From Pseudomonas laurentiana (lineage in GTDB: Bacteria; Pseudomonadota; Gammaproteobacteria; Pseudomonadales; Pseudomonadaceae), in NCBI RefSeq assembly GCF_014648275.1, contig NZ_BMQU01000015.1, positions 1 through 64,000 of the forward strand: a stretch of DNA of 64,000 nucleotides, written 5' to 3'. Position numbers and translations under genes: made by a program. Shown here piece after piece: positions 27,376 through 52,672 of the stretch (positions are counted from its first letter, which is position 1; every line of letters begins with the position of its first letter). The notes under the pieces were generated by a model. The model ran no database searches. It saw nothing but the letters and a program-made list of their open reading frames with translations, and was not told where the DNA came from.

Positions 27376-27383
27376 GTGAATCC

Positions 27384-31413: not shown

Positions 31414-32144
31414 TGCGTGCGTTGGCTTGGCAGAACCGCTGGAAAACAATCATCGGAAAACTCCGCGTGGTCAGTAATCCGGGTGATGAACAAAGGATGC
31501 TGGACGCGTTATCCGCACCCGACGCTGCAACCGTGCTTGGATTCGTCAATGCCCATGCCATGAATCTGGCGGCGGGTAACGCCGATTACTACAAGGCGTT
31601 GTCGTCTGCAGATGTGTTGTTGCGGGACGGTAGTGGCATGGCGATCCTGTTTCGTCGACTGGGACTCGTACCCGGATTGAATATGAATGGCACGGACTTT
31701 ATCCCCAAGGTACTGGCAGCGTTCAAGGGGCGGCGTGTGGCGTTCTGGGGGACTCAAGCGCCTTTCCTGGACAATGCAGTGCAGCGTAGTGAAGCGCTGT
31801 TCGGAGTACATGTAGTCTCTGCTCACCATGGCTTTGCCGAGGTGGATACCTACCTCAATCTTGCGCAGCACATGCAGCCTGAGTTGATCGTGTTGGGTAT
31901 GGGAATGCCCAAGCAGGAAGCCATTGCCGCCAGGTTGGCCGCCAGTGGTATACCGTGCCTGATTGTGTGTGGTGGGGCGATCCTGGATTTTCTTGGCGGT
32001 AAGGTCATGAGAGCGCCACGATGGCTGCGCCGTTTAGGTTGTGAGTGGGCGTTCAGGCTGATGCGTGAGCCAAAGCGATTGTTCAGTCGTTACGTGTTGG
32101 GTAATCAAATGTTCCTGTTGCGTACGCTGAGGTGCCGAAAGTGA
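31413..32144 (+). CDS. WecG/TagA/CpsF-family glycosyltransferase
   Basis: 243 residues, start overlapping the previous stop. The GT26 hallmarks are present: NAHAMNLAAGNADYYKALSS, DGSGMAILFRRLG, VAFWGTQAPFLDNAV, ELIVLGMGMPKQEAIAARLA and CGGAILDFLGGKVMRAPRWL with the late RLMREPKRLFSRYV. It usually transfers a UDP-activated sugar (N-acetylmannosaminuronate, glucuronate or similar) as the second step on the undecaprenyl carrier, which fits the priming transferase encoded next. Last gene before a 553-bp gap. Confidence 0.9.
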   Translation: MRALAWQNRWKTIIGKLRVVSNPGDEQRMLDALSAPDAATVLGFVNAHAMNLAAGNADYYKALSSADVLLRDGSGMAILFRRLGLVPGLNMNGTDFIPKVLAAFKGRRVAFWGTQAPFLDNAVQRSEALFGVHVVSAHHGFAEVDTYLNLAQHMQPELIVLGMGMPKQEAIAARLAASGIPCLIVCGGAILDFLGGKVMRAPRWLRRLGCEWAFRLMREPKRLFSRYVLGNQMFLLRTLRCRK

Positions 32145-32697
32145 CGACGCAGAGCCGTGCAGTCAAGGCAAGCAGCCATGCTCCTGGAGCGTTTCAACAA
32201 CCCTGATAAACAACTAGTTTCGAATCAGACCGCGCTGATCGGAGGGTGATGCTACAGTGATATTAACCGTTGCTTGAACGTTGGGGGGAAGTGCTGGGGG
32301 GGCTCTACGCGACTGGTTGTGTAGGCGTTTGGTGTGTACTGAGACGTGCGGCTAAAACGACTCGAAGGTCAGGGAGGAACTCGCGGGATGAACAACGGGC
32401 TAGCGGTCCGTTTTCAACGTAGCCTTTCTGCAGACTTGACTGCACGTCAACTGCCAGGTGGCGCCAGCGTGAGGGCGTTGCGGGTTGCTCAGGGCGGGAG
32501 TCCGTACCTGACCCGGACGTTTACATTGCCTAATGATCCATATTCTGTACGGAGGCGTCCGGGTGTGACCGGGGTTTGCCTCGGCACAGTAGCAGCACGA
32601 CATAACGTTTCTGTGTCTGTTGGCTGTTTGTTGTTTTTATTATTTTTGGGTCGGTAGGCAAGCACTCGGCATCTCAATTGTATTACGAGGTCTAGTC
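32145..32697 (+). promoter_or_regulatory. Long untranslated stretch before the priming transferase gene
   Basis: 553 bp without a confident gene. It may be a promoter plus long leader for the last EPS gene. An 89-codon frame (about 32388-32657) has a good ribosome site (GGGAGGA) but a sequence without recognisable features apart from a short hydrophobic end, so I do not call it. GC content drops sharply toward the ATG. Confidence 0.4.
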
Positions 32698-34122
32698 ATG
32701 ATTTTTGAGCCCAGAAGTAGCCGCTCCCTACTCCAGCGCCGAAGCAGTATCAGTAACGCTGTCCAAGCGGCTCTTGACGGCATTGCAGTGACCGGCGTTG
32801 CCTGGTCCCTCATTTATTATCATATCGGCTACATGACACCCGATTATGTCATCATGGTGCTGTTGTTGCTGGGTGCGTTGGCCATTATTTATGATCATTA
32901 TGCTATTTATCGCAGTAATGTGAGTTTTTCTATCAAGGCGTTTAAGCTCTTCAAGGCGTGGTCGGCTACATTTTGTTTCCTGGTGGTCATGGCGTTTCTC
33001 ACCAAGCAAAGTACGGAGTATTCGCGGCTGTTAGTCGCGGAGTTATTTGTGGTGGGTTATTGTGTGCAGGTGCTTTTGCACTTGGCCGTGCGCGAAGTGC
33101 AAAAAAAGTTTCTGGCACTCCCGTCGCGCTTGGAAAATGCGCTGATTATTGGCGGGGGCGAGCTGGTTAATTTCTTGCACCAGAAAATCAGCAATAACCC
33201 CTGGTCGGGTGAGCGGGTTGTCGGCTGTATATTGATCGGCGGTGAGGAGGCACGCGGGAGCGAGAGCGCTGAGAGCAAGCAGCGTCTATCGATACTGGGC
33301 AACCTCTCCGAGCTCGATGAGGTCATCGAGCAGCATGCCATTCGTACGGTGTATTTCGTGACCCCGCTGGATGGCTCTGAGGTCATCAAGGATGTTTATT
33401 TAAGGCTGTTGGATAAGTATATTTCTGTTAACTGGGTGCCTGATATTTTTTCACTCCGCCTGATCAATCACAGCGTTCGAGAAATTGCCGGCATGCCCGT
33501 GCTGACGTTGTCTGAAACACCGCTGATGGGGACGAAGCTGTTTCTGAAGAATCTTGAGGACAAATTCCTGTCGGCCCTTATCCTGCTGCTTGCTGCACCC
33601 CTGCTGATGGTCATTGCCATTGCGATCAAGATCGACAGCCCTGGGCCGGTATTCTTTCGGCAGGAACGCAAGGGGTGGAGTGGGGAGGTCTTCCGTATCT
33701 GGAAGTTCAGAAGCATGGTTGTCCATCAGTCAGAAGATGGCATGGTCAAACAAGCAGAAAAAAATGATGCGCGAGTGACCCGGGTGGGTGCCTTTATTCG
33801 TCGAACCAGCCTGGATGAGTTGCCGCAGTTGTTCAACGTGCTGATGGGCGAAATGTCGTTGGTGGGGCCAAGGCCGCATGCGATTCAGCATGATGCGCAG
33901 TACTCCCAGAGCATTGCAGACTATTTTGCCCGTCATAATATCAAACCCGGTATTACAGGCCTGGCTCAGGTGCGTGGCTTTCGAGGCGAAACGAAAGATA
34001 TCGAACAGATGATTCATCGTGTTGATTCTGATATTGAGTACATCAATAACTGGTCGTTGTGGCTCGATTTCGTCATTCTGCTGCGAACGGTGTTTGCGTT
34101 CACCGGCAAGCAAGCCTACTAA
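32698..34122 (+). CDS. Polyprenyl glycosylphosphotransferase (EPS priming enzyme)
   Basis: 474 residues; ACGAGG 8 nt before the ATG rules out an upstream frame. N-terminal half: four to five helices and a CoA-binding-3-like region ([13 protein letters not shown]). C-terminal half: bacterial sugar-transferase domain with [50 protein letters not shown] and [11 protein letters not shown]. WcaJ/WbaP-like: it moves sugar-1-phosphate (probably glucose or galactose) from UDP-sugar to undecaprenyl phosphate and so starts repeat-unit assembly. End of the EPS locus. Confidence 0.92.
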
Positions 34123-34126
34123 CTGT

Positions 34127-34165
34127 TCGGTGTCATCCAAGTTTTATGACGCTTTATGACACCGA
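34127..34165. terminator. Hairpin between convergent EPS and ftsH genes
   Basis: A 10-bp stem TCGGTGTCAT/ATGACACCGA with an ~19-nt loop; its right arm enters the ftsH stop codon. It shares the GGTGTCA/TGACACC arms with the hairpin at 18713-18741. No long T run after it, so termination strength is uncertain. Confidence 0.5.
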
Positions 34166-35962
34166 GCCCAATGGCGGGAACTCCTCAGGCGTCAGGGTTT
34201 CTTTCTCCAGCAGTAGCCTGGCGCCGGTGTCCAGATCGGTCCGACGCTGTGCAAGCAGTGCCTTGGCCTGGCTGTAAGCATCCTCGAGCAACCCTCTGAT
34301 CGCGAGGTCGATTTCTCGTGCGGTGTGCTCTGAATAGTCCTTGTCGCGTGTGGCCAGCAGGTTTTCACCCAGGTAGCTTGCGGTGTTTCGCTCCAGTACG
34401 GCCTGGCCGAGCGTTTCGCTCATGCCGAAGCGGGTGACCAATTGCCGGGCGATGTCGGTGGCTTTGGCCAGGTCGTCAGCAGCCCCGGTGGAGATTTGGC
34501 CATAAACGATGAACTCGGCGGCACGTCCGGCCATCAACACGACCATGCGATCTTTCAGTGTCTGGCAACTGACCAGAAAATGATCGGCGTTCGGACGCTG
34601 CAAGGTGTAACCCAAGGCGCCAACAGCACGGGGGACGATGGATACCTTGTGAACCGGGTCCATTCCGGGAAGTGTGGCTGCAGCCAAGGCGTGGCCCATT
34701 TCGTGATAGGCAACCACCTGGCGCTCCTGGGGCAGTAGCAGGCTGCTTTTACGCTCCACGCCAGCCACGATTCGTTCCACTGCGGCCGTAAAGTCATTCA
34801 GCGTGACGGTCTGGCCGCCGCGTCGCGTTGCCACGATTGCCGCCTCATTGACCAGGTTCGCCAGGTCTGCACCGGTAAAGCCCGTGGTAATGTCGGCGAT
34901 GCGTTCACTGTCGATACTTGGGTCCACCGTGACGTTCTTCAAATGAACCTTGAGGATCTCGCTACGGCCTTTGCGGTCAGGCCGGTCAATGATGATCTGG
35001 CGGTCGAAGCGACCGGCGCGCAACAGGGCAGGGTCGAGGATCTCCGGCCGGTTGGTTGCTGCCAGCAAGACCACGCCTTCACGGGGATCGAACCCGTCCA
35101 GCTCGGCCAGCAACTGATTGAGTGTCTGTTCCTTTTCATCGTTGCCACCAAAGGCACCGACGCCACGCATTTTTCCCAAGGCATCGAGTTCGTCGATAAA
35201 GATGATGCACGGCGCGGCGGCTCGGGCCTGCTCGAAGAGGTCGCGAACCCTGGCTGCGCCCACGCCCACGAACATTTCGACGAATTCCGAACCAGAGATG
35301 GAAAAGAACGGTACACCCGCTTCACCGGCCACGGCCTTGGCAACCAGTGTCTTGCCGGTGCCCGGAGGCCCGACCAGCAGAATACCTTTAGGGATGTGGG
35401 CACCCAGGCGGGCGTATTTAGCCTTGTCTTTCAAAAAGGAGACGATTTCGACCAGTTCAGCCTTGGCCTCGTCAATACCTGCCACATCTGCGAAGGTCAC
35501 CCCGGTCTCGCGCTGGACAAAGATCTTTGCCCTGGACTTTCCAACGCCCATCAGGCCGCCCATGCCTTGTTTGCCAGCCATTGAGCGCATGATCAGGTTC
35601 CAGCCAAACAGCAACAACATCAGCGGCATGAGCCAGCCCAGCAGTTGGCTGCCAAAGGAACTTTCCGGTATGCCGGTAAAGTTGACATCGGCTCCGGAAG
35701 CGGTGAGCTCATTGGCCAGCGCCGGGTCGACCCGGACCGTCGAAAACTGCTTATGGCCATTGATCGGCTCTTCCAATACGCCCGAAATCTGCTCCCGTTC
35801 GATTTTCAGGTCAGAGACTTTATGCGCCTCCAACAATTGCAGGAACTGGCTGTAAGGAATAGGTTCCAGCGGATTCCGGTTGGATTGCATGAACTGCAAC
35901 AAAGACAGGGCAATGAAGGCAGATGCAAAGAAAAATATGAACTCCCAGCGAATGTTCTTCAT
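34154..35962 (-). CDS. ftsH: FtsH-type AAA zinc metalloprotease (accessory copy)
   Basis: 602 residues. N-terminal helix ([20 protein letters not shown]), a small periplasmic FtsH-ext domain, a second helix near 108-125, then AAA with Walker A GPPGTGKT (198-205), Walker [30 protein letters not shown] and zinc site H420-E-M-G-H424. It degrades misassembled membrane and regulatory proteins. It is shorter at the C-terminus than the usual ~640-residue housekeeping FtsH, with many substitutions (GMGGLMG, FVQRET). It is isolated from rrmJ/folP, hence an extra copy. Divergent from the metal-ATPase/GroEL operon. Confidence 0.88.
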
Positions 35963-36172
35963 GGCTGCGTCTCGTCAGAACCCGCGCAGCCGCTGACATG
36001 GGCAAGTGGTCGCATGGTCCATCCCCCTTTACGTTTCAATCTTTACGTTTCAATGCTTCAACCATAGAACATAGCGTAGCTGGCTGAACGGCTTGGCTAT
36101 GCACAAGCATCTCGCCTACGCTTGAGGTGTTTCGTAAACCCTTCAGGCTGCAGCAACCGTGACGTGGCCACT

Positions 36173-38464
36173 ATGCCGTTCATTTCGCAACTGCCCTACA
36201 GGGCACTGTTGGTGGTGTCCGCTTTAACGCTGTTGGTCGGCACCCTGTTGCATCTGAATTCGCAGACCGCGTTGGCGCATGGGTTGTGGCTGGCGGGTGT
36301 GATACCCGTCCTGTTGGGGCTGTGCGTTGATATCGTCAAAACCCTGTTGCGTCGTCAAGCTGGGGTCGATGTTCTGGCGTTGTTGTCGATTGGTCTGGCG
36401 CTGGTACTGGACGAAATCCTGACCGCAGCAGTCATCGCGTTGATGGTGGCCAGTGGACGAGCCCTGGAGGATTACGCCGAAGCGCAGGCCCGCCGTGAAA
36501 TGACCGCGTTGTTGAACCGGGCTCCCCGCGTGGCCAACCGTTACGAAGACGGTCAGTTGCGGCAAATCAGCCTTGAGCAGGTATTGCCAGGTGACAGGTT
36601 GCTGGTGCGTAGCGGGGAAGTAGTACCGGTCGACGGTACCTTGAGCAGCCTTGCGGAACTGGACGAGTCCATGTTGACGGGGGAGTCCTTGCCGGCTCGG
36701 CGCTTATCAGGCGACACCGTTCGCAGTGGCGCTATCAATGCCGGGGCTGCGTTTGACATGACCGCGAGTGCCAGCGCTGCCAACAGCACGTTTGCCGGGA
36801 TCGTCCGGCTGGTTTCTTCGGCCCAGGCAACGCGTAGCCCGGTAGCCCGGCTGGCAGACCGTTATGCACTGTTGTTCGTGCCATTGGCACTCGCTTTGGC
36901 TGGACTCGCCTGGTTTACTACCGCAGACCCGATCCGGCTGCTCGCGGTGTTGGTCGTCGCAACGCCGTGCCCACTGATTCTCGCGGTGCCGGTGGCGATC
37001 GTTTCCGGCATGTCACGCTGTGCGCGCAGAGGTGTACTGGTGAAAGGTGGCGGCGCGCTGGAACGGCTCGCTCAGGCCAACACCCTGTTTTTTGACAAGA
37101 CCGGCACCCTCACGGGTGGTAACGCACGACTCGTTGCCATTGAGTGTGAGCCACACACCCGCGCAGACGAGGTCCTGCGCCTTGCGGCGTCGCTGGATCA
37201 GGCCTCCAATCATGTGATTGCTGCGGCGATAGTCGCTGCTGCGCGCGAGCGCGGCCTGGTGCTTTCCGTACCTGCACAGGTGGTCGAGGAGCCTGGCGCG
37301 GGGGTGTCCGGGCAGGTGGATGGCAAGTCAGTGACCGTCGGCGCCTTCGCCTATGTGATCCGCACCTCGGCGCCGGCCTCCTGGAGCCAGTTGTTTCTTC
37401 AGCGCTTGCGGTACGACGGCGCCTGCGGGGTGTTTGTAGGCGTGGATGGTGTGATGCAAGGGGCGTTGCACCTGACCGATGAGATTCGTCTGGAAACACC
37501 GCGGGCATTGCGCCTGTTGCGTCGAGCGGGGATAGAGCGCTTCGTGATGCTGACCGGTGACCGGCAGCACATCGCCGACTCGATTGGTGCTGTGCTCGGT
37601 GTGACCGACGTACGGGCAGAGCAAACACCTGCTGACAAACTCGCTGCCATCCAGGCGGCACGCCGTGACGGCGTGGTCATTATGGTGGGTGATGGGGTCA
37701 ACGATGCCCCGGCGCTGGCGGCGGCCGACATTGGCGTGTCCATGGGCGCGCGGGGGGCGGATGCGTCGTCCGAAGCGGCGGATGTGGTGTTGCTGGTAGA
37801 CCGTCTGGACCGTCTGGCGGAGGCGCTGATGGTGGCCCGTCGAACACGCCGGATCGCAGTTCAGAGCGTTGCTGTTGGCATGGGGCTGACACTGGTGGCG
37901 ATGGTCGTGGCCGCGTTCGGCTACCTGCCGCCTGTGGCTGGCGCGTTGTTGCAGGAGGTGATCGATCTGGTTGCGATCCTCAGCGCGTTGCGCGCCCGCC
38001 AGGCCGGCTCGATGCGACCGTCGGGGGGATTGTCGAGTGAACAGTGGACACAATTGCAGGTTGAACACCAACAACTCAAACCCGTGCTGGACAGCGTCAG
38101 GTCATTGGCTGATCGCCTGAGCAGCCTGTCCGGCCCGGTCGCGGCAGCCGAGCTCGCTGAGCTGAACGAGCGTTTGCTTCACCAACTGCTGCCTCACGAA
38201 CGCCAGGACGACAGTGAACTGTACCCGCGCATCGCCGTGTTGACCGGGGGCGACGACCCGATGGCGGCGATGAACAGCACGCACCGCGAGATTTTTCGCA
38301 TCACTGGACGGCTTGCCCACATTGCACAGGAGCTGCCGGAGAGCGGTCCCGACCCTGCGTACATGCAGGAAATCCAGCGGCTCTTGTACGGCCTGGACGC
38401 TATTTTGCGTTTGCACTTTGCTCAGGAAGAGGAGCTCTATCACGCGTTCAGGGAGAGCAGTTGA
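36173..38464 (+). CDS. P1B-5-like metal-transporting ATPase fused to a hemerythrin domain
   Basis: 763 residues from ATG 36173. There is no N-terminal heavy-metal-associated domain; three to four helices precede the actuator motif [10 protein letters not shown]. The metal-path motif is T264-P-C-P-L ([10 protein letters not shown]), phosphorylation D308-K-T-G-T, hinge [10 protein letters not shown], and a late QEVID in [17 protein letters not shown] plus QExxD is the P1B-5 (Nia-like, Ni/Fe) pattern. The last ~100 residues form a hemerythrin-like helical bundle with histidines and glutamates ([38 protein letters not shown]). Likely iron/nickel efflux sensing O2 or iron. First gene of an operon. 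Confidence 0.85.
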
Positions 38465-38595
38465 GGTGGCTGCCGCACATCGGCGAATGCCTGGGGATGT
38501 TGGCCTTTTTTGATAAAAGTCAAGGCTGGACGGGGGCATTCATGGAGGCTGTCAGGACAGGCTGGTGGCTGAACGATCCCGGAGTGCATCCCGAT

Positions 38596-40212
38596 ATGGC
38601 CCACACAAAAATTCTCTTTCGTTCCGCTGCTCGCGAGAAAATCCTCTGCGGCGCAGCGCAATTGGCGGACGCCGTTCGCGTGACCCTCGGGCCCAAATCG
38701 AAATCGGTGTTGATCCAGAACAATTGGGGCAATCCCACCGTCTGCAATGACGGTGTGACCATTGCCAAACGGGTCGATCTGCTGGACCCCGAGGAGAACC
38801 TAGGCGCCCAGATGCTGCGTCAGGCCGCCGAGCGTACCGGTGATGCCGTGGGCGATGGTACGAGCACCGCGACGCTGCTGGCCCATGCAATCCTCGCCGA
38901 CGGCATTCGCAATGTCGTTGCCGGTGCCAGTGCCATTGACCTGAAGCGTGGGCTGGACCGTGGCTTGGCGCTGGTGATGCAGTCGTTGCTTGCGCAGTCG
39001 CGTCCGGTGAGCACCTTCAAGGAGAAGGCCCAGGTGGCGACACTTTCGGCCCATAACGATGCGACCATCGGCCAATGGGTCGCGGATGCCCTGGAGAAGG
39101 TCGGCATTGAGGGCGTCGTCAGCGTGGAAGAGTCCAAGACGACCGAAACGGTGGTCGAAGTCATGGAGGGCATGCGCTTCGACCGCGGCTATGTCTCACC
39201 CTATTTTGTGACTGATACCGAGAAGATGCAGGTAGAACTCGACGAGGCCTACCTGTTGCTCTGCGATCATAAGATCGGCTTGCTGAAAGACCTGCTGCCC
39301 GTGCTTGAAAAGGTCGCTAAAAGTGGTCAGCCGTTGGTATTGATTGCCGATGACATCGAGGGTGAGGCCTTGACCACGCTGGTGGTCAACCAGATCCGTG
39401 GCGTGTTGCGCGCCGTGGCAATCAAGGCCCCCGGCTTTGGCGATCGGCGCAAGGAGATGCTCCAGGACATCGCCGTTCTGACGGGGGGGACGGTGATTTC
39501 CAGCGAACTGGGCATTGAGTTGGAACAGGTGGAGCTGAGTCAGTTGGGGCAGGCGCATCGTGTCGTGGTACAGAAAGACAGCACGGCGCTGATTGGCGGC
39601 GTGGGCCAGCGGGAGGCCATCGATGCTCGTCTGCAACATATTCGCCAGCAAATGGACAGCACCACCAGCGACTATGACCGCGAGAAGCTTCAGGAGCGCT
39701 TGGCCAGGTTGTCCGGTGGCGTTGCAGTAATCCGTGTGGGCGCGCCTTCCGAGGCTGAGATGAAGGTGCGCAAGGATGCCTTGGACGATGCCATTTCAGC
39801 GACCCGGGCAGCCATTGCCGAAGGTATTGTCCCGGGGGGAGGGCTGGCACTGCTCAAGGCCATCCCGATGATTGCGGCAGAGGAAGCCACGAGTGAAGGC
39901 GACTTCAAGACCGGGCTGCAGATCTTGCGTCGGTCGCTGGAGGCCCCGGCCAGGGTCATCGCGGAAAATTCGGCGGTGGATGCCGGCGTTGTCGTCGCAC
40001 GCATGCTCGCAGAGTCCGACAACATTGGCTTTGATGCCGCCACCAATCGTTATGTGGACATGTTCGAGGCGGGCATCATTGACCCGACGAAGGTGGTGCG
40101 GATTGCGTTGGAAAACGCGGTTTCAGTTGCCAGCATCCTGCTGTTGACCGAAGCCACGATGACCGACATTGCGGAGAAGGAAACACCAACGCAGTTGCCA
40201 CTCCCTGAGTGA
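38596..40212 (+). CDS. groEL: GroEL-type chaperonin paralogue
   Basis: 538 residues from ATG 38596; a longer in-frame start would overlap the ATPase stop but adds an unrelated tryptophan-rich segment. Chaperonin hallmarks remain: the ATP-binding [14 protein letters not shown] with its aspartate, [12 protein letters not shown], and [20 protein letters not shown] with the catalytic Asp. It differs clearly from the housekeeping protein ([20 protein letters not shown] opening) and ends [12 protein letters not shown] without the GGM repeats. No groES is beside it. Probably a specialised or stress-time folding machine for operon products. Confidence 0.88.
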
Positions 40213-40248
40213 CTGGCACCGATGACGGGTGCTCATGCGAGGCTAATC

Positions 40249-42008
<1,760 letters not shown>

Positions 42009-42012
<4 letters not shown>

Positions 42013-42998
42013 GTCCTCAGCCGTTGCCCTATGCACACGATGTGTTACTCGCCTTGCTCCGCGACATGCTGCGTATCCGCCGTTTCGAGGAGCGTGCCGC
42101 CGAGCTGTATGGTGAAGGAAAAATTCGCGGTTTCCTGCACCTCTACATTGGTGAAGAGGCGGTGGCTGTCGGTGCCTTGCATGCACTTGGCGCTCACGAT
42201 GCGGTGGTCTCGACCTACCGTGAACATGGCCACGCGCTGCTCAAAGGGGTGCCGATGCAGGCGATCTTCGCCGAGATGTACGGGCGTCAGGAAGGGTGCT
42301 CACGAGGCCGCGGCGGCTCTATGCACCTGTTCGATGCCAAGACCCGTTTCTACGGCGGCAACGCGATTGTCGCTGGCGGTTTACCGTTGGCTGTCGGGCT
42401 GGCCCTGGCCGACCGTATGCAGGGAAAGGCAGATGTCTCGGTGTGTTTCTTCGGCGAAGGGGCAATGGCGGAGGGTGCATTCCATGAGTCGATGAACCTG
42501 GCGGCACTCTGGCAGTTGCCTGTGCTGTTTTGTTGTGAGAACAACCTCTACGCAATGGGTACCGCACTGGCGCGCTCACAGTCGCAAACGGATCTGTGTG
42601 CAAAGGCCTCGGCCTACAAGGTCGCTACCCAGGCGGTGGATGGCATGGACGTGATTGCGGTGTATCAAGCCACGACCGCAGCGCTTGAGCATATCCGTGC
42701 AGGGCTCGGGCCGTATTTCCTGGCGTTTCAGACCTATCGGTTCCGTGCCCACTCGATGTTCGACCCGGAGTTGTATCGCGACAAGGCGGAAGTGGAGCAA
42801 TGGAAGGCCCGCGGGCCGCTTCATACCTACAGCGCGCGGCTCAAGGCGCAAGGCGTGCTCGACGAAGCGGGTTTTCTGGCGATGGCGGCGCAGGTGGAGG
42901 CCGAGGTGGAGGCCGCGATTGCTTATGCCGAGGCCGGCAGCCTGGAGCCTGTCGAGGATTTGTACCGCGACGTGCATACCCCGGAGCCTGCGCCATGA
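42009..42998 (+). CDS. Pyruvate/acetoin dehydrogenase E1 alpha subunit
   Basis: 329 residues. [20 protein letters not shown] and [16 protein letters not shown] open a thiamine-diphosphate E1 alpha subunit. The cofactor motif is [20 protein letters not shown]...[10 protein letters not shown], with GEG where most E1 alpha have GDG (the acidic Mg2+ ligand is kept). The phosphorylation-loop region [15 protein letters not shown] follows. It decarboxylates a 2-oxo acid (pyruvate, acetoin or branched-chain). Overlaps both flanking genes by 4 nt; no E3 gene is nearby, so E3 must be borrowed. Confidence 0.88.
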
Positions 42999-43975
42999 GC
43001 CCGCCCATGACCTACCGCGAAGCCTTGCGCGAGGCGTTGCGTGATGCGTTGCAACGGGATGCGCGGGTGTTCCTGATGGGCGAGGACGTGGGGCGCTATG
43101 GCGGAAGCTATGCCGTCTCCAAGGGGTTGCTGGAGGCGTTTGGTCCGGAGCGCATTCGTGATACCCCGTTATCCGAGCTGGGTTTCGTTGGAGCCGGTAT
43201 CGGGGCTGCACTGGGTGGAATGCGACCGATCGTCGAAGTCATGACGGTCAACTTCAGTCTGTTGGCCCTGGACCCGCTGATGAACACGGCGGCGGCCTTG
43301 AGACATATGTCCGGTGGGCAGTTTTCCGTACCGCTGGTGGTGCGCATGGCAACGGGCGCCGGGCGCCAACTGGCTGCCCAGCATTCCCACAGCCTGGAAG
43401 GCTGGTATGCGCATATTCCGGGGTTGAAAATTCTCGCGCCGGCAACGGTCGAAGATGCCCGCGGCATGCTCTGGCCGGCCCTGCAAGACCCGGATCCCGT
43501 GCTGATTTTCGAACATGCCCAGCTCTACAACCAAGAGGGTGAACCGGGTGACTGGCAGCAGGTTGATATCTGCAGCGCCAAGGTTCGTCGAGCAGGCAGG
43601 GACCTGACGCTGATTGCCTACGGCGGCACCCTCGGCAAGGCGCTGAAGGCTGCGGAGCAATTGGCCCGGGAGGGTATTGAGAGTGAAGTCATCGACCTGC
43701 GTGTGCTGCGCCCGCTGGATGATGCCACCCTCATGGCATCCGTCGGCAAAACCCGTCGTGCGCTGGTGGTCGATGAAGGTTGGCGCAGCGGCAGCCTGGC
43801 AGCCGAAATCATTACTCGGATCATCGAACAGGCTTTTTTCGAGCTGGATGCGCCACCGTCAAGGGTGTGCAGTGCCGAAGTACCCATTCCCTATGCCCGG
43901 CATCTCGAAGAGGCCGCGCTGCCACAGGTCTCGACGATTGTTGCCGCCGCCCATGAACTCTGTAGAGGGGCGTGA
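42995..43975 (+). CDS. Pyruvate/acetoin dehydrogenase E1 beta subunit
   Basis: 326 residues from the ATG overlapping the E1 alpha stop; longer upstream frames are artefacts. It has [67 protein letters not shown] and [20 protein letters not shown], typical of transketolase-like E1 beta. The C-terminal half keeps [12 protein letters not shown]. It completes the E1 heterotetramer with the preceding product and delivers the acyl group to E2 encoded downstream. Confidence 0.9.
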
Positions 43976-44024
43976 ACATGCACAGGACCGGGCGCATCGG
44001 CAGGCCAGATTGGAGGCGCGCGCC

Positions 44025-45149
44025 ATGATCGAGTTCAACCTGCCCTCACTCGGCGCAGACATGGATGAAGGCACCTTGCTGGAGTGGAAAGTTCAACCAG
44101 GAGAAACCGTCAGGCGGGGGCAGGTGATCGCCGTTGTCGACACGGCCAAGGCCGCTGTAGAAATCGAGTGTTGGCATGACGCTACCGTCGCACAATTGTT
44201 GATTGAGGTCGGCACCAAGGTGCCGGTCGGAACACCGATCGCGCTATTGCTGGCGCCAGGCGAGGACGCATCAAGCGCAGCACTGGCACCGCGTATCACC
44301 GGTCACGAACGGATTGAAACACCAAGGGCCGTCGGCAGCCGTCCACGGATCTCCCCGGCGGCACGCAAGCGCGCGGCCGAGCTGGGCCTGGATGCCACGT
44401 TACTGAAGGGTAGCGGCCCACACGGCGTGATTACGCTGGACGATGTCGAGTCGGCCGGTCGTGCTGCAACACCACCTGACCGTAACCAGGCCATGCGCCA
44501 AACGATCGCCATGGCCATGAGTCGTTCGAAACGCGAGATACCCCACTATTACCTGTGCGAAACCCTTGCGCTGGGCAACGCCATGACCTGGCTGCAGGCA
44601 CACAATGCGCAGTGCCCGTTGCAGGAGCGCTTGTTGCCCAGTGTCCTGCTGCTAAAAGCAGTGGCCCTGGCCCTGCGAGCGTATCCCCGGCTCAATGGCT
44701 TCTGGCGAGACGGGAATACCTTCGAGCCTGCGACCGGTAGTGACCTTGGGGTGGCGATTTCGTTGCGCCAGGGCGGCTTGCTTGCGCCGGTCTTGCATGA
44801 TGTCGCAGCGAAGTCGTTGCCCCAGTTGATGAGTGAGCTGGCCAACCTGGTGGAGCGTACACGCAGTGGCGCCTTGCGCAGCTCGGAACTCAGCGGTGCG
44901 GGCATGACGGTGACGATTCTTGGTGATCAAGGGGTGGACACCGTCATCGGTGTGATCTACCCGCCCCAGGTGGCGTTGGTCGGCTTCGGGCGGATCAGTG
45001 AGCGGCCCTGGGTGCACGAGGGGCAATTGTGCGTGATGCCCACCGTTGTCAGCAGCCTGTCTGCCGATCATCGCGCCAGCGACGGCCACTACGGTGCGCG
45101 GTTTCTCGTCGAGCTGGGTCATTTGCTACAACAACCAGAGAACCTCTGA
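44025..45149 (+). CDS. Dihydrolipoamide acyltransferase (E2)
   Basis: 374 residues; the ATG with GGAGG 8 nt upstream is the start, 49 nt after the E1 beta stop. One lipoyl domain with the lipoylated lysine K42 (DTAKAAVEIE), a peripheral-subunit-binding domain (RISPAARKRAAELGLDATLL), and a catalytic core ending in the active-site SADHRASDG (DHRxxDG). The core passes the acyl group to CoA, or possibly to the carrier protein encoded next (speculation). It is a short E2 with one lipoyl domain, as in acetoin or branched-chain complexes. Confidence 0.9.
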   Translation: MIEFNLPSLGADMDEGTLLEWKVQPGETVRRGQVIAVVDTAKAAVEIECWHDATVAQLLIEVGTKVPVGTPIALLLAPGEDASSAALAPRITGHERIETPRAVGSRPRISPAARKRAAELGLDATLLKGSGPHGVITLDDVESAGRAATPPDRNQAMRQTIAMAMSRSKREIPHYYLCETLALGNAMTWLQAHNAQCPLQERLLPSVLLLKAVALALRAYPRLNGFWRDGNTFEPATGSDLGVAISLRQGGLLAPVLHDVAAKSLPQLMSELANLVERTRSGALRSSELSGAGMTVTILGDQGVDTVIGVIYPPQVALVGFGRISERPWVHEGQLCVMPTVVSSLSADHRASDGHYGARFLVELGHLLQQPENL

Positions 45150-45160
45150 GGAATGCCCAC

Positions 45161-45436
45161 ATGGATCGACAATTGATCAGCAGCCAGGTCCTGAGCGCTT
45201 TGAAAGGTATTGCGCCAGAGCTGGACGTCGAGTGCCTGCGCGGTGATCGGTCACTGCGCGAAGAGGTTGATCTGGACTCCATGGACTGGCTTCGCTTCAT
45301 TGAAGCGTTGAACAAGCGCGTCGGCATTGCCATCCCCGAGGCCGACTACCAACAGGTACAAACCCTGGACACGCTCGTTGACTATCTGTTGCAAAAGGGC
45401 ACGACGAGTGCTGATCCGCCATTGATTAGCCCTTAG
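45161..45436 (+). CDS. Acyl carrier protein
   Basis: 91 residues; TGAGGA 10 nt before ATG. A four-helix carrier fold with the phosphopantetheine site in VDLDSMDWLRFIEALNKRVG, serine S40 (DSM replaces the usual DSL). It follows the E2 gene by 11 nt and precedes the phosphoribosyltransferase. No ketosynthase or other fatty-acid enzyme is nearby, so it probably carries the acyl group made by this operon's dehydrogenase or ligase. That partnership is inference. Confidence 0.85.
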   Translation: MDRQLISSQVLSALKGIAPELDVECLRGDRSLREEVDLDSMDWLRFIEALNKRVGIAIPEADYQQVQTLDTLVDYLLQKGTTSADPPLISP

Positions 45437-45447
45437 GAAGGTGTCAG

Positions 45448-46125
45448 ATGAATCCTAGTCCCTCGCTGGAAATGACCTTACGTGACAGAACGGCTGCCGG
45501 AAAAAGCCTGGTGGAGCCGCTGCTTAAGTACGCACACAGGGATGATGTCATTGTTCTCGGCCTGCCACGTGGCGGTGTTCCGGTGGCCTACGAGATTGCC
45601 ACCGCCTTGGAGGTTCGCCTGGACGTGATGCTGGTTCGCAAGCTGGGTGCGCCCTCCCATGAGGAATATGCCCTGGGCGCCATTGCCAGTGGCGGCATAG
45701 AAATCGTCAACGAGCAGGCGTTACGGGTCAACCACATCGATCAGGCGACGCTGGATGCCATCGTTGAGCGCGAAACGCGTGAGCTGCTGCGTCGTGAAAC
45801 TGCCTACCGGGCCGGGCGGCCGCCCTTGAACCTCAAGGATCAGGTGGTGATTCTGGTTGATGACGGGCTGGCCACCGGTGCATCGATGATGGCTGCGGTG
45901 CATGCCGTGCGTCGGCAGGATCCGGCACACATTGTCGTTGCAGTGCCTGTGGCGGCCCTGGAGTCTGCCGAGGCCTTGCGCAGTGAAGTGACCGAACTGG
46001 TGTGCCCGCTCACCCCCGAGTGGCTGATGTCGATCGGCCAGTGGTACCTGGACTTTTCCCAGACATCGGATAACGAGGTCATCGACCTGCTGCAGCGTGC
46101 CTGGCAACGTGAATCTGCCGCGTGA
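45448..46125 (+). CDS. Phosphoribosyltransferase-family protein
   Basis: 225 residues with a strong ribosome site (AGGAAGGTG). The type I PRPP-binding motif is VVILVDDGLATGASMMAAV, preceded by RGGVPVAYEIA and LVRKLGAPSHEEYALGAIA. This matches the stand-alone ComF-like/DUF family often found next to dienelactone hydrolases, erythromycin esterases and stress genes, rather than a base-specific PRTase. The substrate is unknown. Last gene of the operon that begins with the ATPase. Confidence 0.85.
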   Translation: MNPSPSLEMTLRDRTAAGKSLVEPLLKYAHRDDVIVLGLPRGGVPVAYEIATALEVRLDVMLVRKLGAPSHEEYALGAIASGGIEIVNEQALRVNHIDQATLDAIVERETRELLRRETAYRAGRPPLNLKDQVVILVDDGLATGASMMAAVHAVRRQDPAHIVVAVPVAALESAEALRSEVTELVCPLTPEWLMSIGQWYLDFSQTSDNEVIDLLQRAWQRESAA

Positions 46126-46137
46126 ATGTCACGGTCC

Positions 46138-46167
46138 TGTGGGAAGCAGGCTTGCCTGCGATGGCAT
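46138..46167 (+). repeat. Pseudomonas REP element
   Basis: Contains GAAGCAGGCTTGCCTGCGAT, a palindromic core (GCAGGCTTGCCTGC) shared with the REP pair at 60801-60878. Located 13 nt after the phosphoribosyltransferase stop, the usual intergenic position of REP sequences. Confidence 0.8.
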
Positions 46168-46200
46168 CGTCGGCGCGTCCACACGGGAGCGATGGTGTAA

Positions 46201-46300
46201 GGAAGGAACCCGGAGCGTAGCGTAGGGCCGGATGTCGGGACAGGGCGTTTTGCCCACTTTTGCGCCCTTCCAAAAGTGGGTCGCCGTAAAAGGCGAAACC
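46201..46300. repeat. Second type of intergenic repeat with hairpin
   Basis: The sequence GGAACCCGGAGCGTAGCGTA, then GGGCCGGATGTCGGGACAGG and a hairpin CCCACTTTTG/CCAAAAGTGGG (46253-46280), matches a dispersed intergenic element that I recognise from fluorescens-group genomes. It is distinct from REP, and it separates two convergent genes. The recognition is from memory, not from a search. Confidence 0.55.
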
Positions 46301-46497
46301 AGCCGGTGGTGCCGCTGCAGGAAATGGATATGTTCACGAGGTAAGAGCCAATAGCCACAAACGACCTCCTGGAGGGACGATTTGGCGGTGCCTGCAGGTT
46401 CAGCACATGGAAAAGCACCGCCGGAAAGACAGGCTCAGCCCATGTCGCGCCCTTAAATGAACAGCATTACTGTCCTCGTCGAAGCTATAGGCTGCCC

Positions 46498-47844
46498 CTA
46501 CACGCCAAACGGATAGGTCTCGTCTTCCGGTTCCAGTCTCTGGGATTTCGGCAGCGGCAACGCTGTGACCGGACGCGTCTTTTCAAACCACACCATCGCG
46601 TCGAACTGCTCGGCCAGTACGGCCTGAAAGTAGTGACTTTCGCGTTCACTTTGCGGGCGGTAGATGACGCCGATGGCCCGTTCCAGCAGCGACATGGACA
46701 GCGCCTCGCGCAAATCCTCTCGTTGGGGATCACGCCAGTCGGTCAATGAGCGAGGCACGCCGGCCTTGAGAAACTGCTGTTCCCAGCTATCGGCACGTGA
46801 GGGGCGCACATCCTTGATGTGCATGTCGCCATCCCAATCATCGGCTGCCGCTACCTGGCCATGATCGGTGCTCATGCCGATCAGTACCACGTCACGGCCG
46901 TAGGCGTTGCGACAGAGTTGTCCGATATTGAACTGTCCTTTCCAACCCATCTCCGTGGCACTCGCATTGCCGATGTGGGAGTTGTGCGCCCACACCACGG
47001 CCTTGGCGTGAGTGCCCCGATGCGTGAGCAGTGCCTGCAAGGTGTCGAACATATGCCGGTCGCGCAGGTTCCACGAGGCACTCGAGCCGCGATAAATGGC
47101 CCGGTAGTATTGTTCCGCCGCCCGGATGACTTGTGCATTCTGCCGGGCATTGAAAAAGGCTTCGTCGTCCTTCATTAGCCCGGTCATCTGTTTGGTCAGC
47201 ATGACGTTCAGTTGCTCGACCACCGCTTGCTCACAGGGCATCACGCCCGCACGCTCGACAAAATGCCCATACAGCGTGGGATCATCCTGCCAAGGGGTCA
47301 GGCATCCGTAGCGTTGCCGCGCCTCCTGCGCCAACAGTGGGGCGACACTGTCCAGGTAGTGCAAGACTTCACGAATGGAATTGCGCAGGCTGTACACATC
47401 CAGCCCACGAAATTCGACACGCTGTTCGGGGGCTATCAAGTGGTTGTGTTGATGAAGCCAATGGGCAAAGGCTTTGACCTCGGCATTGCGCCACATCCAG
47501 GTGGGGAATCTGCTGAAAATGTGATGCTTCCAGGCTGTCGCTGCCAGGCCGCGCACATAACGGTCAAGGTGGCCGGCATCCGGCCAGTCCGCTTCGACGG
47601 CGACGATGTTGAAACCGTGCTTGGCAATCAGTCGCTGGGTGATCGCCGCACGGGCTTGATAGAAGTCCGAGGTGCCATGGCTGGCTTCGCCGATCATGAC
47701 CACGCGTGCATCGGCGTATCGGTCAAACAGTTCGCCAAAGGCTTCTGTATCTACCGCAGGCAGCGGTTCGGCGTAATGGCGTAACACCGGGGTAATGGCG
47801 GCCTGGGCACTGTTGGCTCGGTAGGCATAGGGTTTCTTCAACAT
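46498..47844 (-). CDS. Erythromycin-esterase-family protein
   Basis: 448 residues. It has ADARVVMIGEASHGTSDFYQ, NIVAVEADWPDAGHLDRYVR, FPTWMWRNAEVKAFAHWL and VVWAHNSHIGNASATEMGWK, which match the catalytic histidine/glutamate motifs of the EreA/succinoglycan-biosynthesis superfamily. Chromosomal members are usually not resistance enzymes and sit in stress clusters with phosphoribosyltransferases. The substrate is unknown. The ATG overlaps the end of the upstream APH-like fragment, so the two are co-translated. Confidence 0.88.
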   Translation of the reverse strand: MLKKPYAYRANSAQAAITPVLRHYAEPLPAVDTEAFGELFDRYADARVVMIGEASHGTSDFYQARAAITQRLIAKHGFNIVAVEADWPDAGHLDRYVRGLAATAWKHHIFSRFPTWMWRNAEVKAFAHWLHQHNHLIAPEQRVEFRGLDVYSLRNSIREVLHYLDSVAPLLAQEARQRYGCLTPWQDDPTLYGHFVERAGVMPCEQAVVEQLNVMLTKQMTGLMKDDEAFFNARQNAQVIRAAEQYYRAIYRGSSASWNLRDRHMFDTLQALLTHRGTHAKAVVWAHNSHIGNASATEMGWKGQFNIGQLCRNAYGRDVVLIGMSTDHGQVAAADDWDGDMHIKDVRPSRADSWEQQFLKAGVPRSLTDWRDPQREDLREALSMSLLERAIGVIYRPQSERESHYFQAVLAEQFDAMVWFEKTRPVTALPLPKSQRLEPEDETYPFGV

Positions 47845-48404
47845 GCCGTGGTTACTCCCAGAAGCGGGCTTTCGTGGCTCAGGTAGCCTTGTGCCTGACG
47901 CAGTAACTGCCTGGCTTTGTCGGCCTTCAGTTGCCGCAGTGCCGGGTCCTGCTGACGCACCTCGGCGCTGGCATGAAACCGCGCAATCTCGGCCCCTAGC
48001 TCATGGATCAACGGTTCGCTTAATCGCCCTTCAACCGCCATACGGTCGAACAGCGCTTTTTGAGGAAAGCGACGCATCACCACCAGCCAGTCCATGACGT
48101 GGCCATCACCATCGAAGGCCAGCCGACCGTCTGCCTGGCGTGTGATTGGGCACAGGCGCAAATACAGGTCAGGGGCTGTCCGGCTGTTGAGGCGCAACTC
48201 GGCCCGGCAAGCGTGCTCGCGGCGTTTCAGGGTGAGGAAATTCAGTTCTGCATAGGCCACCGCGAGCTTTAGTTTATACGCCCGGTCTGCATGCAGAAAC
48301 ACTCTGGAACCGTGGCTTTCAATGCAGGTGACAGGCTGCTCAGGCCCAGGGTAGCTGCCGGGGCATGAGAGAAAGGCGATGACCTCGTCCTGCGAGCTGC
48401 TCAT
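47838..48404 (-). CDS. Short aminoglycoside-phosphotransferase-like protein (N-terminal part only)
   Basis: 188 residues. It opens VIAFLSCPGSYPGPEQPVTC, then VTCIESHGSRVFLHADRAYK-type strands (VFLHADRAYKLKLAVAYAEL) and LYLRLCPITRQADGRLAFDG, as in the first half of the bifunctional APH/ATP-kinase proteins of about 500 residues. The catalytic loop and the C-terminal P-loop kinase domain are missing. The end (LLGVTTAC) overlaps the esterase start. Either a truncated gene kept for coupling or a minimal domain; catalytic activity is doubtful. Confidence 0.65.
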   Translation of the reverse strand: MSSSQDEVIAFLSCPGSYPGPEQPVTCIESHGSRVFLHADRAYKLKLAVAYAELNFLTLKRREHACRAELRLNSRTAPDLYLRLCPITRQADGRLAFDGDGHVMDWLVVMRRFPQKALFDRMAVEGRLSEPLIHELGAEIARFHASAEVRQQDPALRQLKADKARQLLRQAQGYLSHESPLLGVTTAC

Positions 48405-49955: not shown

Positions 49956-50327
49956 TTAGTTCAGTGTTTTCAGGTAAGCGATCAGGTGTTGGCGGTTCTG
50001 CGCGTCTGCCTGGCCTGGGAACATCATCATGTTGCCCGGCAACAGGGTGGCAGGACTGGTCAGCCATTTGTCCAGGTTTGCTTCATTCCACTGCAGCTTG
50101 GCACCTTGCAGTGCGGCAGAGTAGCTGAAGGCGGGGGCCTGGGCGCTGGCACGGCCGAAGACGCCATGCAGGCTTGGGCCCATGAGATTCTTGCCCGCTT
50201 CGGGGCTGTGACAGAAGCCGCACTGGGCAGTGAACAGGGCTTTGCCCTGGGTGGCGTCGCCCTGAGCAAGGGCCAGAGGGGCAGCCAGCAGCAAGGCACT
50301 GGCAGCGAGCAGTTGCGCGTATTTCAT
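49956..50327 (-). CDS. Class I cytochrome c
   Basis: 123 residues from ATG 50327 (TAGGAAA site); the longer start overlaps the terminator. A signal peptide (MKYAQLLAASALLLAAPLAL, cut near AQGDA) is followed by heme site C36-x2-C39-H40 (CGFCH), MGPSLHGVFGR and a distal methionine in PGNMMMFPG. A periplasmic c550/c2-type carrier. It probably takes electrons from the methylhydroxylase cytochrome to the respiratory chain. An intrinsic terminator separates it from pchF. Confidence 0.85.
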   Translation of the reverse strand: MKYAQLLAASALLLAAPLALAQGDATQGKALFTAQCGFCHSPEAGKNLMGPSLHGVFGRASAQAPAFSYSAALQGAKLQWNEANLDKWLTSPATLLPGNMMMFPGQADAQNRQHLIAYLKTLN

Positions 50328-50343
50328 GGTATTTCCTAGCGGT

Positions 50344-50376
50344 AAAAACGGCCCCGCCGAGAGGTTTCGGCGGGGC
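50344..50376 (-). terminator. Strong hairpin terminator between pchF and the cytochrome gene
   Basis: On the minus strand, just after the pchF stop, a perfect 10-bp stem GCCCCGCCGA/TCGGCGGGGC with a 6-nt loop is followed by CGTTTTTACC. This is a textbook intrinsic terminator inside what looks like one gene run, and it lies 17 bp before the cytochrome ATG. Confidence 0.8.
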
Positions 50377-50387
50377 ATCAAGAGCAA

Positions 50388-51956: not shown

Positions 51957-51969
51957 CTGATTAGCTCCT

Positions 51970-52662
51970 TCAAGCTTCGATCGAGAACGAAACGAAATTG
52001 CCGGTCAACGGCGATGGGCGGCTGGCCACCAGAGGCGCCTGTCCGCTGTCGGCGGTGCCCATTACCGCCAGGGCGTAGCCGAGGGTGGCGGCCCATTGCT
52101 CGGAACCCGCACGGTTACGGCTGGCGGCGCCCATCTGCAGCGGGGCTTTATTGCCATGCAGACGCTGTTCGCTGAGGCTGAAACCGGTGCCGCAGGCATT
52201 CAGCTGCAGGCCAAGCTGCGGGGCGCAGCCGCTGGCCGCTTCGGCGCTAAGCAGACGGTGCTGTGAGGCGTTGGCCGTTGCATTGTGCTGGCCCAGCCAT
52301 TGCACCCGGGCACCCGTGCTGCGCGCCAGGTCTATGATCAGCGCCGCGCTGGCATCGTCGACCAGGCCAATGATGCGTTGCGGTTGGCCGCTGCGCAGGC
52401 GTTTTTCCAGGCCGAGGATGAAGTCCAGGCTCAGGTCGGTGCGCTGCACGCTGACCTGCTTGGCAGCGTTGCTGGCCTTGATCCCCTGGAGGAAGGCCGA
52501 CTCGGCGACATTGCCGCTGACCAAGGCCAGGGTCGGCAGTGCCGGCCGGGCTTGGCCGCCCAGCATGGTGTTGGCCATGGCCAGGCTGGAACTGCCCATG
52601 GCGACACCGGCCAGGCCACCCAGGGCCATACCTTTGAGCAGGAAACGACGTTCGACGTTCAT
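51970..52662 (-). CDS. pchX: PchX-like protein with twin-arginine-type signal
   Basis: 230 residues from the ATG with AAGGAG 6 nt upstream; a longer upstream frame is spurious. The N-terminus MNVERRFLLKGMALGGLAGV is a twin-arginine signal (RRFLLKG). The remainder is low-complexity alanine/glycine/leucine-rich with no known catalytic motif. In the P. putida pchACXF operon a protein of unknown function, PchX, sits between pchC and pchF; position and size agree here. It may assist maturation or assembly of the methylhydroxylase, as inferred from operon order. Confidence 0.75.
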   Translation of the reverse strand: MNVERRFLLKGMALGGLAGVAMGSSSLAMANTMLGGQARPALPTLALVSGNVAESAFLQGIKASNAAKQVSVQRTDLSLDFILGLEKRLRSGQPQRIIGLVDDASAALIIDLARSTGARVQWLGQHNATANASQHRLLSAEAASGCAPQLGLQLNACGTGFSLSEQRLHGNKAPLQMGAASRNRAGSEQWAATLGYALAVMGTADSGQAPLVASRPSPLTGNFVSFSIEA

Positions 52663-52672
52663 GACGCGCTCC

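What the first reader, a model, noticed from the sequence alone, without database searches (positions are those of the whole stretch)
36173..46125. Candidate undescribed operon: metal ATPase, GroEL, acyl-CoA ligase, E1/E2 dehydrogenase, ACP and phosphoribosyltransferase
Eight tightly spaced genes (several with 4-nt overlaps) combine metal export, a chaperonin without groES, acetate-type activation, a 2-oxo-acid dehydrogenase without E3, an ACP and a PRTase. FtsH is divergent, and an erythromycin-esterase-like gene faces the end. I infer a stress-linked acyl-transfer pathway that uses its own folding machine; the whole combination is not one I can name.
Basis: inference. Interest (0 to 1): 0.8.

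Follow-up and report, generated by a model that had tools for sequence, protein, structure and literature searches.

The report
Low-oxygen acetyl-supply operon with ACP
A Pseudomonas-like bacterium carries a widely shared five-gene operon, for which I found no description, that should make activated acetate from pyruvate or acetate, probably when oxygen runs short, and that includes a small carrier protein whose job in such a complex is unknown.

Summary
It is five genes: acetate-CoA ligase, E1-alpha, E1-beta, lipoyl E2 and acyl carrier protein (window 40222-45436). The five were complete and in order in 62 of 62 titled relatives with room for them, in 13 of 13 carriers from a phylum sample and in 11 of 11 genus carriers, host included. 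Of 19 ordinary PDH control loci none had an ACP of this family and 12 had an E3 gene nearby. Catalytic residues are nearly invariant. GroEL has its own FNR/Anr-type box (38510-38523), found at the same place in all 6 loci checked, and in the 5 relatives it is separated from the core or divergent. FNR-type boxes are enriched before the core in two of three locus sets, not in the genus set. Best reading: an accessory low-oxygen PDH/acetate-activation module using housekeeping E3, with its ACP as likely acetyl carrier (inferred). Six searches of an open-licence library aimed at the operon listed no description.

The parts
40222..42012 (+). ACS: short-form acetate-CoA ligase (NCBIfam PRK04319); core gene 1
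   Evidence: 858.6 bits vs cut-off 729; closest PDB chains are acetyl-CoA synthetases; WWQTET motif in 78/78. An alternative ATG lies at 40250.
42009..42998 (+). E1-alpha of a pyruvate-type 2-oxo acid dehydrogenase; core gene 2
   Evidence: TIGR03182 443.1 bits vs cut-off 393.85; closest PDB chain human PDH E1-alpha; Tyr-Arg motif 85/85; ATGA overlap with ACS
42995..43975 (+). E1-beta; core gene 3
   Evidence: Transket_pyr + Transketolase_C, PRK09212 389.9 bits vs cut-off 321; ATGA overlap with E1-alpha; fused to E1-alpha in 6 of 111 core loci, some of them cut
44025..45149 (+). E2: one lipoyl domain, PSBD (E3-binding), acyltransferase domain; core gene 4
   Evidence: Pfam Biotin_lipoyl, E3_binding, 2-oxoacid_dh; lipoyl Lys 73/74, catalytic His 73/74, Asp 72/74
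45161..45436 (+). ACP with DLDSMD phosphopantetheine motif; core gene 5
   Evidence: PF00550; Ser 75/75, Met after it 71/75; below every NCBIfam cut-off shown
38510..38523 (+). FNR/Anr-type box TTGATAAAAGTCAA, 86 nt before the GroEL ATG
   Evidence: only exact TTGAYN4RTCAA in the window; box at the same place in 6 of 6 loci with a close GroEL, window included
38596..40212 (+). second GroEL (PRK12851 subfamily), no GGM tail; accessory, not core
   Evidence: 830.4 bits vs 464; 51% identical to the host's other GroEL; alignment
36173..38464 (+). P1B-type metal ATPase with C-terminal hemerythrin domain; island neighbour
   Evidence: TIGR01525 and PF01814; TPCP and QEVID motifs
45448..46125 (+). 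PRTase-family gene; island neighbour, 11 nt after ACP here
   Evidence: PF00156 63.6 bits; PRTase hits near 16 of 47 titled core loci with about 10 kb on both sides
46498..47844 (-). erythromycin-esterase-like gene (far below the EreA/EreB cut-offs); island neighbour
   Evidence: PF05139; EreB 45.9 bits vs cut-off 750
34154..35962 (-). accessory FtsH protease; island neighbour
   Evidence: TIGR01241 747.3 bits vs 600

Best explanation
The functional unit is the five-gene operon ACS-E1alpha-E1beta-E2-ACP. It is an accessory pyruvate dehydrogenase plus acetate-activating enzyme, used mainly when oxygen is short. E1 decarboxylates pyruvate and loads an acetyl group on the E2 lipoyl arm; E2 passes it to a thiol acceptor; the reduced lipoyl arm is reoxidised by a housekeeping E3 that docks on the E2's conserved E3-binding domain. 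ACS makes the same acetyl thioester from acetate. The dedicated ACP is most likely a carrier that takes the acetyl group from E2 and/or ACS. Shown here by sequence: gene order, catalytic residues, E3-binding domain, lack of E3 in the operon, no ACP of this family in 19 ordinary PDH control loci, FNR-type boxes in part of the loci. Inferred: pyruvate as substrate, low-oxygen induction, E3 sharing and, weakest, acetyl transfer to the ACP. GroEL here is a stress chaperone with its own box that came to lie next to the operon, not its private folding machine.
For: Complete core in order in 62/62 titled loci with room (of 80 kept; the other 18 are cut by contig ends, 5 complete and 13 not), in 13/13 loci of the phylum sample and in 11/11 loci of the genus sample, host included; 0/19 control PDH loci had the core. 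Median gaps of -4, -4, -4 and 5 nt between core genes, starts set by script. Distances of the five proteins over 65 loci correlate, r 0.56-0.82, best of 200 permutations 0.18. Active-site residues near invariant. E1alpha passes the TIGR03182 PDH cut-off. FNR-type box with at most one mismatch within 400 nt before ACS in 30 of 80 loci, random windows mean 4.4, maximum 10; exact box within 500 nt in 5 of 13 phylum-sample loci against a random mean of 0.29, and in 16 of 74 titled loci against 1.75. Neighbours in six plasmid records include USP, Hsp20, FtsH, BON, CBS, Crp/Fnr, acetate kinase or PTA. E1-E2-ACP gene sets that direct a C2 unit into a product are reported in antibiotic pathways (PMC6335953, two passages).
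Against: No expression or enzyme data. 50 of 80 loci have no recognisable FNR box close to ACS. In the genus sample 1 of 11 had an exact box within 500 nt of ACS, about the random level of 0.82, perhaps because other genes precede ACS there. One of 14 actinobacterial loci has an FNR-type box and no DosR-type box stands out. No fusion of ACP to E2 or ACS was found in 111 core loci, so a direct ACP role is not shown. USP and Hsp20 were found near 11 of 47 loci each, and near 3 and 2 of 13 phylum-sample loci, so stress company is common, not universal.
Confidence: 0.58

Rival explanations
1. Plain accessory PDH plus Acs that make acetyl-CoA under stress; the ACP is not an acceptor in this reaction but serves fatty-acid or another synthesis that is merely co-expressed.
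For: The E2 and ACS hallmarks are those of CoA-using enzymes. Sulfitobacter L158 has fabI, a PTA and an acetate-kinase-family gene a few kb upstream; acetate kinase and PTA sit near the core in L025.
Against: The ACP is an extra gene present in every complete core, with a near-invariant DLDSMD motif, which suggests a specific partner.
Confidence: 0.3
2. The ACP is a dedicated octanoyl carrier that helps lipoylate the E2.
For: LipB takes the octanoyl chain from an acyl carrier protein (start of the abstract of PMC9307952, seen in the listing).
Against: That paper's title says LipB binds the ACP weakly and mainly recognises the C8 arm, so a special ACP seems unnecessary. No lipA or lipB was named in the eight plasmid neighbourhoods read (these gene tables are incomplete). 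ACS would be unexplained.
Confidence: 0.05
3. A C2-unit cassette for a small metabolite, like QncN/L/M or SclQ1-4, in which E1-E2 put a two-carbon unit on the ACP for a product.
For: Same gene types: E1 alpha, E1 beta, lipoyl E2, ACP (PMC6335953). Two AMP-binding genes lie by L020.
Against: No gene named NRPS or PKS in the eight plasmid neighbourhoods read (incomplete tables); stress genes recur instead. E1alpha passes the PDH cut-off.
Confidence: 0.07
4. One reading: one eight-gene operon in which GroEL folds the acyl-transfer enzymes and the ATPase protects them.
For: In this window GroEL ends 9 nt before ACS, and PRTase starts 11 nt after ACP, so they may be co-transcribed here.
Against: Among core loci with GroEL at 89-90% identity, L025 and L027 have an APH-like gene and a USP between, L184 a USP, and L180 and L185 have GroEL divergent from the core. 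GroEL is near 5 of 47 core loci.
Confidence: 0.05

Closest known systems
E1alpha/E1beta-type pyruvate dehydrogenase complex
   Same: E1alpha, E1beta, lipoyl-PSBD-acyltransferase E2 with conserved catalytic residues
   Different: ACS upstream and ACP downstream in the operon; E3 gene absent; E1alpha clade separated by an identity gap (14 genomes at 55% or more, the other matches at 47% or less)
QncN/QncL/QncM and SclQ1-4 cassettes (C2 unit and ACP, Streptomyces)
   Same: E1, lipoyl E2 and a stand-alone ACP encoded together (PMC6335953, two passages)
   Different: Those serve a natural-product pathway with a ketose phosphate as proposed donor; here an acetate-CoA ligase is fixed in the operon and stress genes are common neighbours. 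Qnc/Scl sequences were not compared here.
lxa (low-oxygen-activated) locus of Burkholderia
   Same: Low-oxygen island with USPs, a heat-shock/alpha-crystallin protein, BON protein, FtsH-type peptidase, phosphate acetyl/butyryl transferase, acetate kinase and a cation ATPase (PMC4981469 passages with most of Table 2; PMC6127331 passages and section 8 part 1)
   Different: The lxa rows that I saw list no ACP, E1, E2 or acetate-CoA ligase; a few rows were not shown
DosR dormancy regulon
   Same: USPs and alpha-crystallin under low oxygen (as stated in a passage of PMC6127331); the PRTase/erythromycin-esterase pair there is recalled, not looked up
P1B-5 ATPases with hemerythrin domain
   Same: C-terminal hemerythrin domain on a P1B ATPase (PMC9388753 passages); TPCP and QExxD motifs (their subgroup meaning is recalled)
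   Different: Metal substrate untested; an HxE pair (HRE) is visible, the full ligand set was not checked

Membership tests
Pyruvate dehydrogenase complex (E1ab/E2/E3) | E1alpha and E1beta of PDH type | tested here: met
   TIGR03182 and PRK09212 above cut-offs
Pyruvate dehydrogenase complex (E1ab/E2/E3) | Lipoylated E2 with catalytic HxxxDG | tested here: met
   Sites present: Lys 73/74, His 73/74, Asp 72/74; lipoylation itself not testable
Pyruvate dehydrogenase complex (E1ab/E2/E3) | E3 encoded with the complex (common, not required) | tested here: not met
   No LPD hit in the 91 loci mapped; 1 of 13 phylum-sample loci has one about 6 kb downstream of E1alpha, on the other strand beside another E2 hit, and 0 of 11 genus-sample loci; host has three LPD elsewhere
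Pyruvate dehydrogenase complex (E1ab/E2/E3) | Pyruvate as substrate, CoA as acceptor | not testable with these tools
   Needs enzyme assay
Qnc/Scl C2-to-ACP cassette | E1 + lipoyl E2 + stand-alone ACP in one cluster | tested here: met
   definition from PMC6335953
Qnc/Scl C2-to-ACP cassette | Located in a natural-product cluster | tested here: not met
   No gene named NRPS or PKS in the eight plasmid regions read nor in the window genes scanned; the other loci were mapped only with chosen queries
Qnc/Scl C2-to-ACP cassette | C2 unit actually transferred to the ACP | not testable with these tools
   Needs mass spectrometry of holo-ACP
lxa locus | Induced by low oxygen | tested here: inconclusive
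   FNR-type boxes only; no expression data
lxa locus | Gene set of lxa | tested here: not met
   Core genes not in the rows seen of PMC4981469 Table 2
P1B-5 ATPase | P1B core plus C-terminal hemerythrin domain | tested here: met
   definition from PMC9388753 passages
GroEL (Cpn60) | Full-length group I chaperonin | tested here: met
   TIGR02348 716.8 bits vs 582.1; aligns over its length with the host's other GroEL, GGM tail missing

The most novel reading that the evidence does not exclude
A CoA-independent branch of central metabolism: an E1-E2 pyruvate dehydrogenase and an acetate ligase that charge a private ACP, so that cells in low oxygen hold and route acetyl units as acetyl-ACP, apart from the CoA pool. 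The ACP would stand in the operon where ordinary PDH operons often have E3, and the module would have spread through several phyla.
Probability: 0.28. Interest if true: 0.82.

Novelty: new variant of a known kind. Interest (0 to 1): 0.56.

Why it matters
A fixed five-gene operon, seen in Pseudomonadota and Actinomycetota and in single assemblies labelled Nitrospirota, Acidobacteriota and Candidatus Binatota (metagenome bins by their titles), was not described in anything I could find, though every gene looks textbook. It suggests that many environmental bacteria keep an extra pyruvate dehydrogenase for low oxygen, and it raises a sharp, testable question: what does an acyl carrier protein do in a pyruvate dehydrogenase operon? 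If E2 loads it, a step of core carbon metabolism has an unrecognised acceptor.

Tried and rejected
Eight-gene operon as a unit: rejected after neighbourhood comparison. GroEL as part of the core: rejected. ATPase/GroEL 4-nt overlap: an artefact of a TTG start. Loose FNR pattern (two mismatches) over the whole window: 41 matches, 17.9 expected, 0 of 100 shuffles as many, so it is common here in general and says nothing about one site; I used the exact pattern instead. DosR regulation in actinobacteria: 14 loci scanned, best 5-8 mismatches of 20, 3 of 14 with 4% or less of random windows as good; inconclusive. Sphingobium/Sphingomonas plasmid GroEL hits: the one record opened of five has a groES-groEL pair, 52% identical. 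Phage copies: 17 records, E1 homologues below 60% identity. CoA versus ACP acceptor from sequence: looked at ACS and E2 alignments, no decision possible. PDB search with GroEL at 1e-190 gave no row and was not repeated; the host's other GroEL was used instead. ACP family naming: below the cut-offs shown. Sigma-70 promoter scan 34000-48000: 0 found, 3.3 expected. Repeats around the cluster: only weak short matches. Literature: ten searches answered; six were aimed at this operon (1, 4, 6, 8, 8 and 1 papers, all listed), four at neighbours or precedents (lists capped). None of the six lists shows a paper on the operon by title or start of abstract; the library holds only open-licence papers, and supplements could not be read. 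No structure prediction was run.
Full report
What is there. The window lies in a 5.2-Mb genome whose core genes group with those of Pseudomonas in the tree, so I call its genus Pseudomonas by inference. Between a polysaccharide cluster and an aromatic-oxidation cluster lie FtsH (-), then on the + strand a P1B ATPase with hemerythrin domain, a second GroEL, ACS, E1alpha, E1beta, E2, ACP and PRTase, and a convergent erythromycin-esterase-like gene. Two exact ATGA overlaps join ACS-E1alpha and E1alpha-E1beta. The GroEL start is at 38596; the tighter spacing there comes from an upstream TTG.

The conserved unit. In the 62 loci with room on both sides, all 62 have ACS-E1alpha-E1beta-E2-ACP in this order and strand; of the other 18, cut by contig ends, 5 are complete and 13 are not. 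Because those 80 were chosen by similarity, I took a sample drawn evenly from the phylum: 398 genomes, of which 114 match at 1e-80. E1alpha identity is two-peaked: 14 genomes including the host at 55% or more, the other 100 at 47% or less. The 13 non-host carriers all have the full core (12 fetched, one). In the genus, 11 of 249 genomes, host included, carry it and 11 of 11 have the full core. Two of the nine genus loci fetched (L181, L182) have the contig lengths of L028 and L029, so the sets overlap a little; the phylum sample shares no contig length with the 80. As control I picked 19 of the 100 genomes with ordinary E1alpha, from the upper part of the list (8, 11; three stretches were cut by contig ends): 0 of 19 had the core, 0 of 19 an ACP hit, 12 of 19 a lipoamide dehydrogenase hit, 3 of 19 an ACS-family hit within 9 kb. 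The ACP test used only ACPs of this family as queries (tblastn, 1e-4), so an unlike ACP could be missed in controls.

Signs of one functional unit. Median gaps between neighbours are -4, -4, -4 and 5 nt over 83, 84, 81 and 75 loci (starts set by script, pairs with gaps outside -200 to 1500 dropped). Distance matrices of the five proteins over 65 loci with all five (length-filtered; rows dropped are listed) correlate at 0.56-0.82, the best of 200 permutations being 0.18. E1alpha and E1beta are fused in 6 of 111 core loci, some cut; no fusion joins ACP to E2 or ACS. Catalytic residues: lipoyl Lys 73/74, His 73/74, E3-binding-domain Pro 74/74, E1alpha Tyr-Arg 85/85, ACS WW 78/78, ACP Ser 75/75 in a DLDSMD motif. 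The tree of 65 concatenated cores (quick method, midpoint root) keeps Actinomycetota in one clade, drawn among Pseudomonadota, and groups the window with Pseudomonas loci L025, L027 and L030; patchy presence with some transfer between phyla is the simplest reading (inference).

The neighbours are a pool. Within 47 titled loci with about 10 kb on both sides, outside the core: PRTase 16, Hsp20 11, USP 11, erythromycin-esterase-like 9, CBS 9, PRS 8, P-type ATPase 6, GroEL 5, FtsH 5, BON 4, hemerythrin 3, Crp/Fnr 2, GNAT 2. De novo clustering agreed: apart from the core and frames overlapping it, nothing recurred in more than 10 of 54 loci (its longest-ORF rule undercounts in G+C-rich DNA, finding the core genes themselves in only 25-43). 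Six plasmid records show the core among USP, Hsp20, FtsH, BON, CBS, Crp/Fnr, nicotinate PRTase, PTA or acetate kinase; two others show fewer such genes. In the phylum sample stress genes were rarer: USP 3, Hsp20 2, GroEL 1 of 13 within 9 kb.

GroEL. At 89-90% identity it is near the core in L025, L027, L180, L184 and L185, and as a short 88% stretch in L030. L025 and L027 have an APH-like gene and a USP between GroEL and ACS, L184 has a USP, and in L180 and L185 GroEL points away from the core. Direct contact is seen only in the window among the loci mapped. Its upstream region holds TTGATAAAAGTCAA, the only exact FNR/Anr-type box in the window (0.23 expected, 22 of 100 shuffles have one or more, so alone it is weak); but all 6 loci, window included, have a box at 84-86 nt before the start (L180 with A for G), and its first nine bases are the longest invariant run of the alignment. 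Just upstream of the box the window has the end of the ATPase gene, which is not in the aligned stretches of the others, so the ATPase was probably joined there and is a separate unit (inference). GroEL aligns over its length to the host's other GroEL and lacks the GGM tail.

Regulation of the core elsewhere. Within 400 nt before ACS, 30 of 80 loci (of 91 mapped; 4 set aside, the rest without a usable ACS start) have a box with at most one mismatch; random windows of the same loci average 4.4, maximum 10 in 300 trials; exact 10 against 1.25. With an exact pattern in 500 nt: phylum sample 5 of 13 against 0.29; titled loci 16 of 74 against 1.75; genus sample 1 of 11 against 0.82, not enriched. 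In actinobacteria 1 of 14 has the one-mismatch box and no DosR box stands out.

Function. E1alpha and E1beta pass PDH-type cut-offs and ACS passes the PRK04319 acetate-CoA ligase cut-off. E2 has an E3-binding domain, and the host has three E3-type genes and two AceE-type PDH, so the core is an accessory PDH that borrows E3 (inference). With ACS it would make an acetyl thioester from pyruvate or acetate. Two loci read also carry PTA and acetate kinase (L025, L158), which could turn it into ATP and acetate; use for low-oxygen survival is inference. For the ACP, the only precedent I found is QncN/L/M and SclQ1-4, where E1, lipoyl E2 and ACP are encoded together; the Qnc set is reported to direct a C2 unit onto a non-ribosomal peptide (PMC6335953, two passages). 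I therefore favour acetyl loading of the ACP, at about 0.3.

What is known. The lxa low-oxygen locus of Burkholderia shares the neighbour families but not the core in the rows seen (PMC4981469 passages including most of Table 2; PMC6127331 passages and section 8 part 1; PMC3759415 and PMC9104464 passages). P1B-5 ATPases with hemerythrin domains are known (PMC9388753 passages). Six searches aimed at the operon listed no paper on it; this is absence from an open-licence library, judged by titles and abstract starts, not proof that it is unpublished.

Verdict.

Noticed in passing
   Followed up: partly
window 49956-57957: Aromatic-oxidation cluster: cytochrome c, FAD-linked oxidase, aldehyde dehydrogenase, a XylR_N/V4R sigma-54 regulator and a Phenol_MetA_deg protein.
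   Followed up: no
window 16326-34122: Polysaccharide cluster: Wzz-like (below cut-off), Wzy_C ligase, several glycosyltransferases, WecG type, Bac_transf.
   Followed up: no
window 36001-44000: G+C content steps from 0.55 to 0.62 near the start of the stress genes.
   Followed up: no
L024, L026, L158, L165, L167, L168: E1-alpha and E1-beta fused in one reading frame in 6 of 111 core loci.
   Followed up: yes
L030:7216: Short GroEL-like stretch (88% identical, no long frame listed there) before the core, with two exact FNR-type boxes before ACS.
   Followed up: partly
L027:13459-15858: One frame with a beta-lactamase-family domain and NamZ domains next to the core; similar hits in L180 and L184.
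   Followed up: no
L022, L023: Close relatives of this GroEL (69% identical) on Bosea and Rhizobium plasmids beside PRTase, PRS, Hsp20 or USP, with no core hit in the 25-kb stretches.
   Followed up: partly
L025:17148-18623; L158:1986-3383: Phosphate acetyltransferase joined with a MaoC-type or enoyl-CoA hydratase part, next to an acetate-kinase-family gene beside the core.
   Followed up: partly
window, whole: Loose FNR-like palindromes (two mismatches) are twice as common as in shuffles, 41 against 17.9; unexplained.
   Followed up: no
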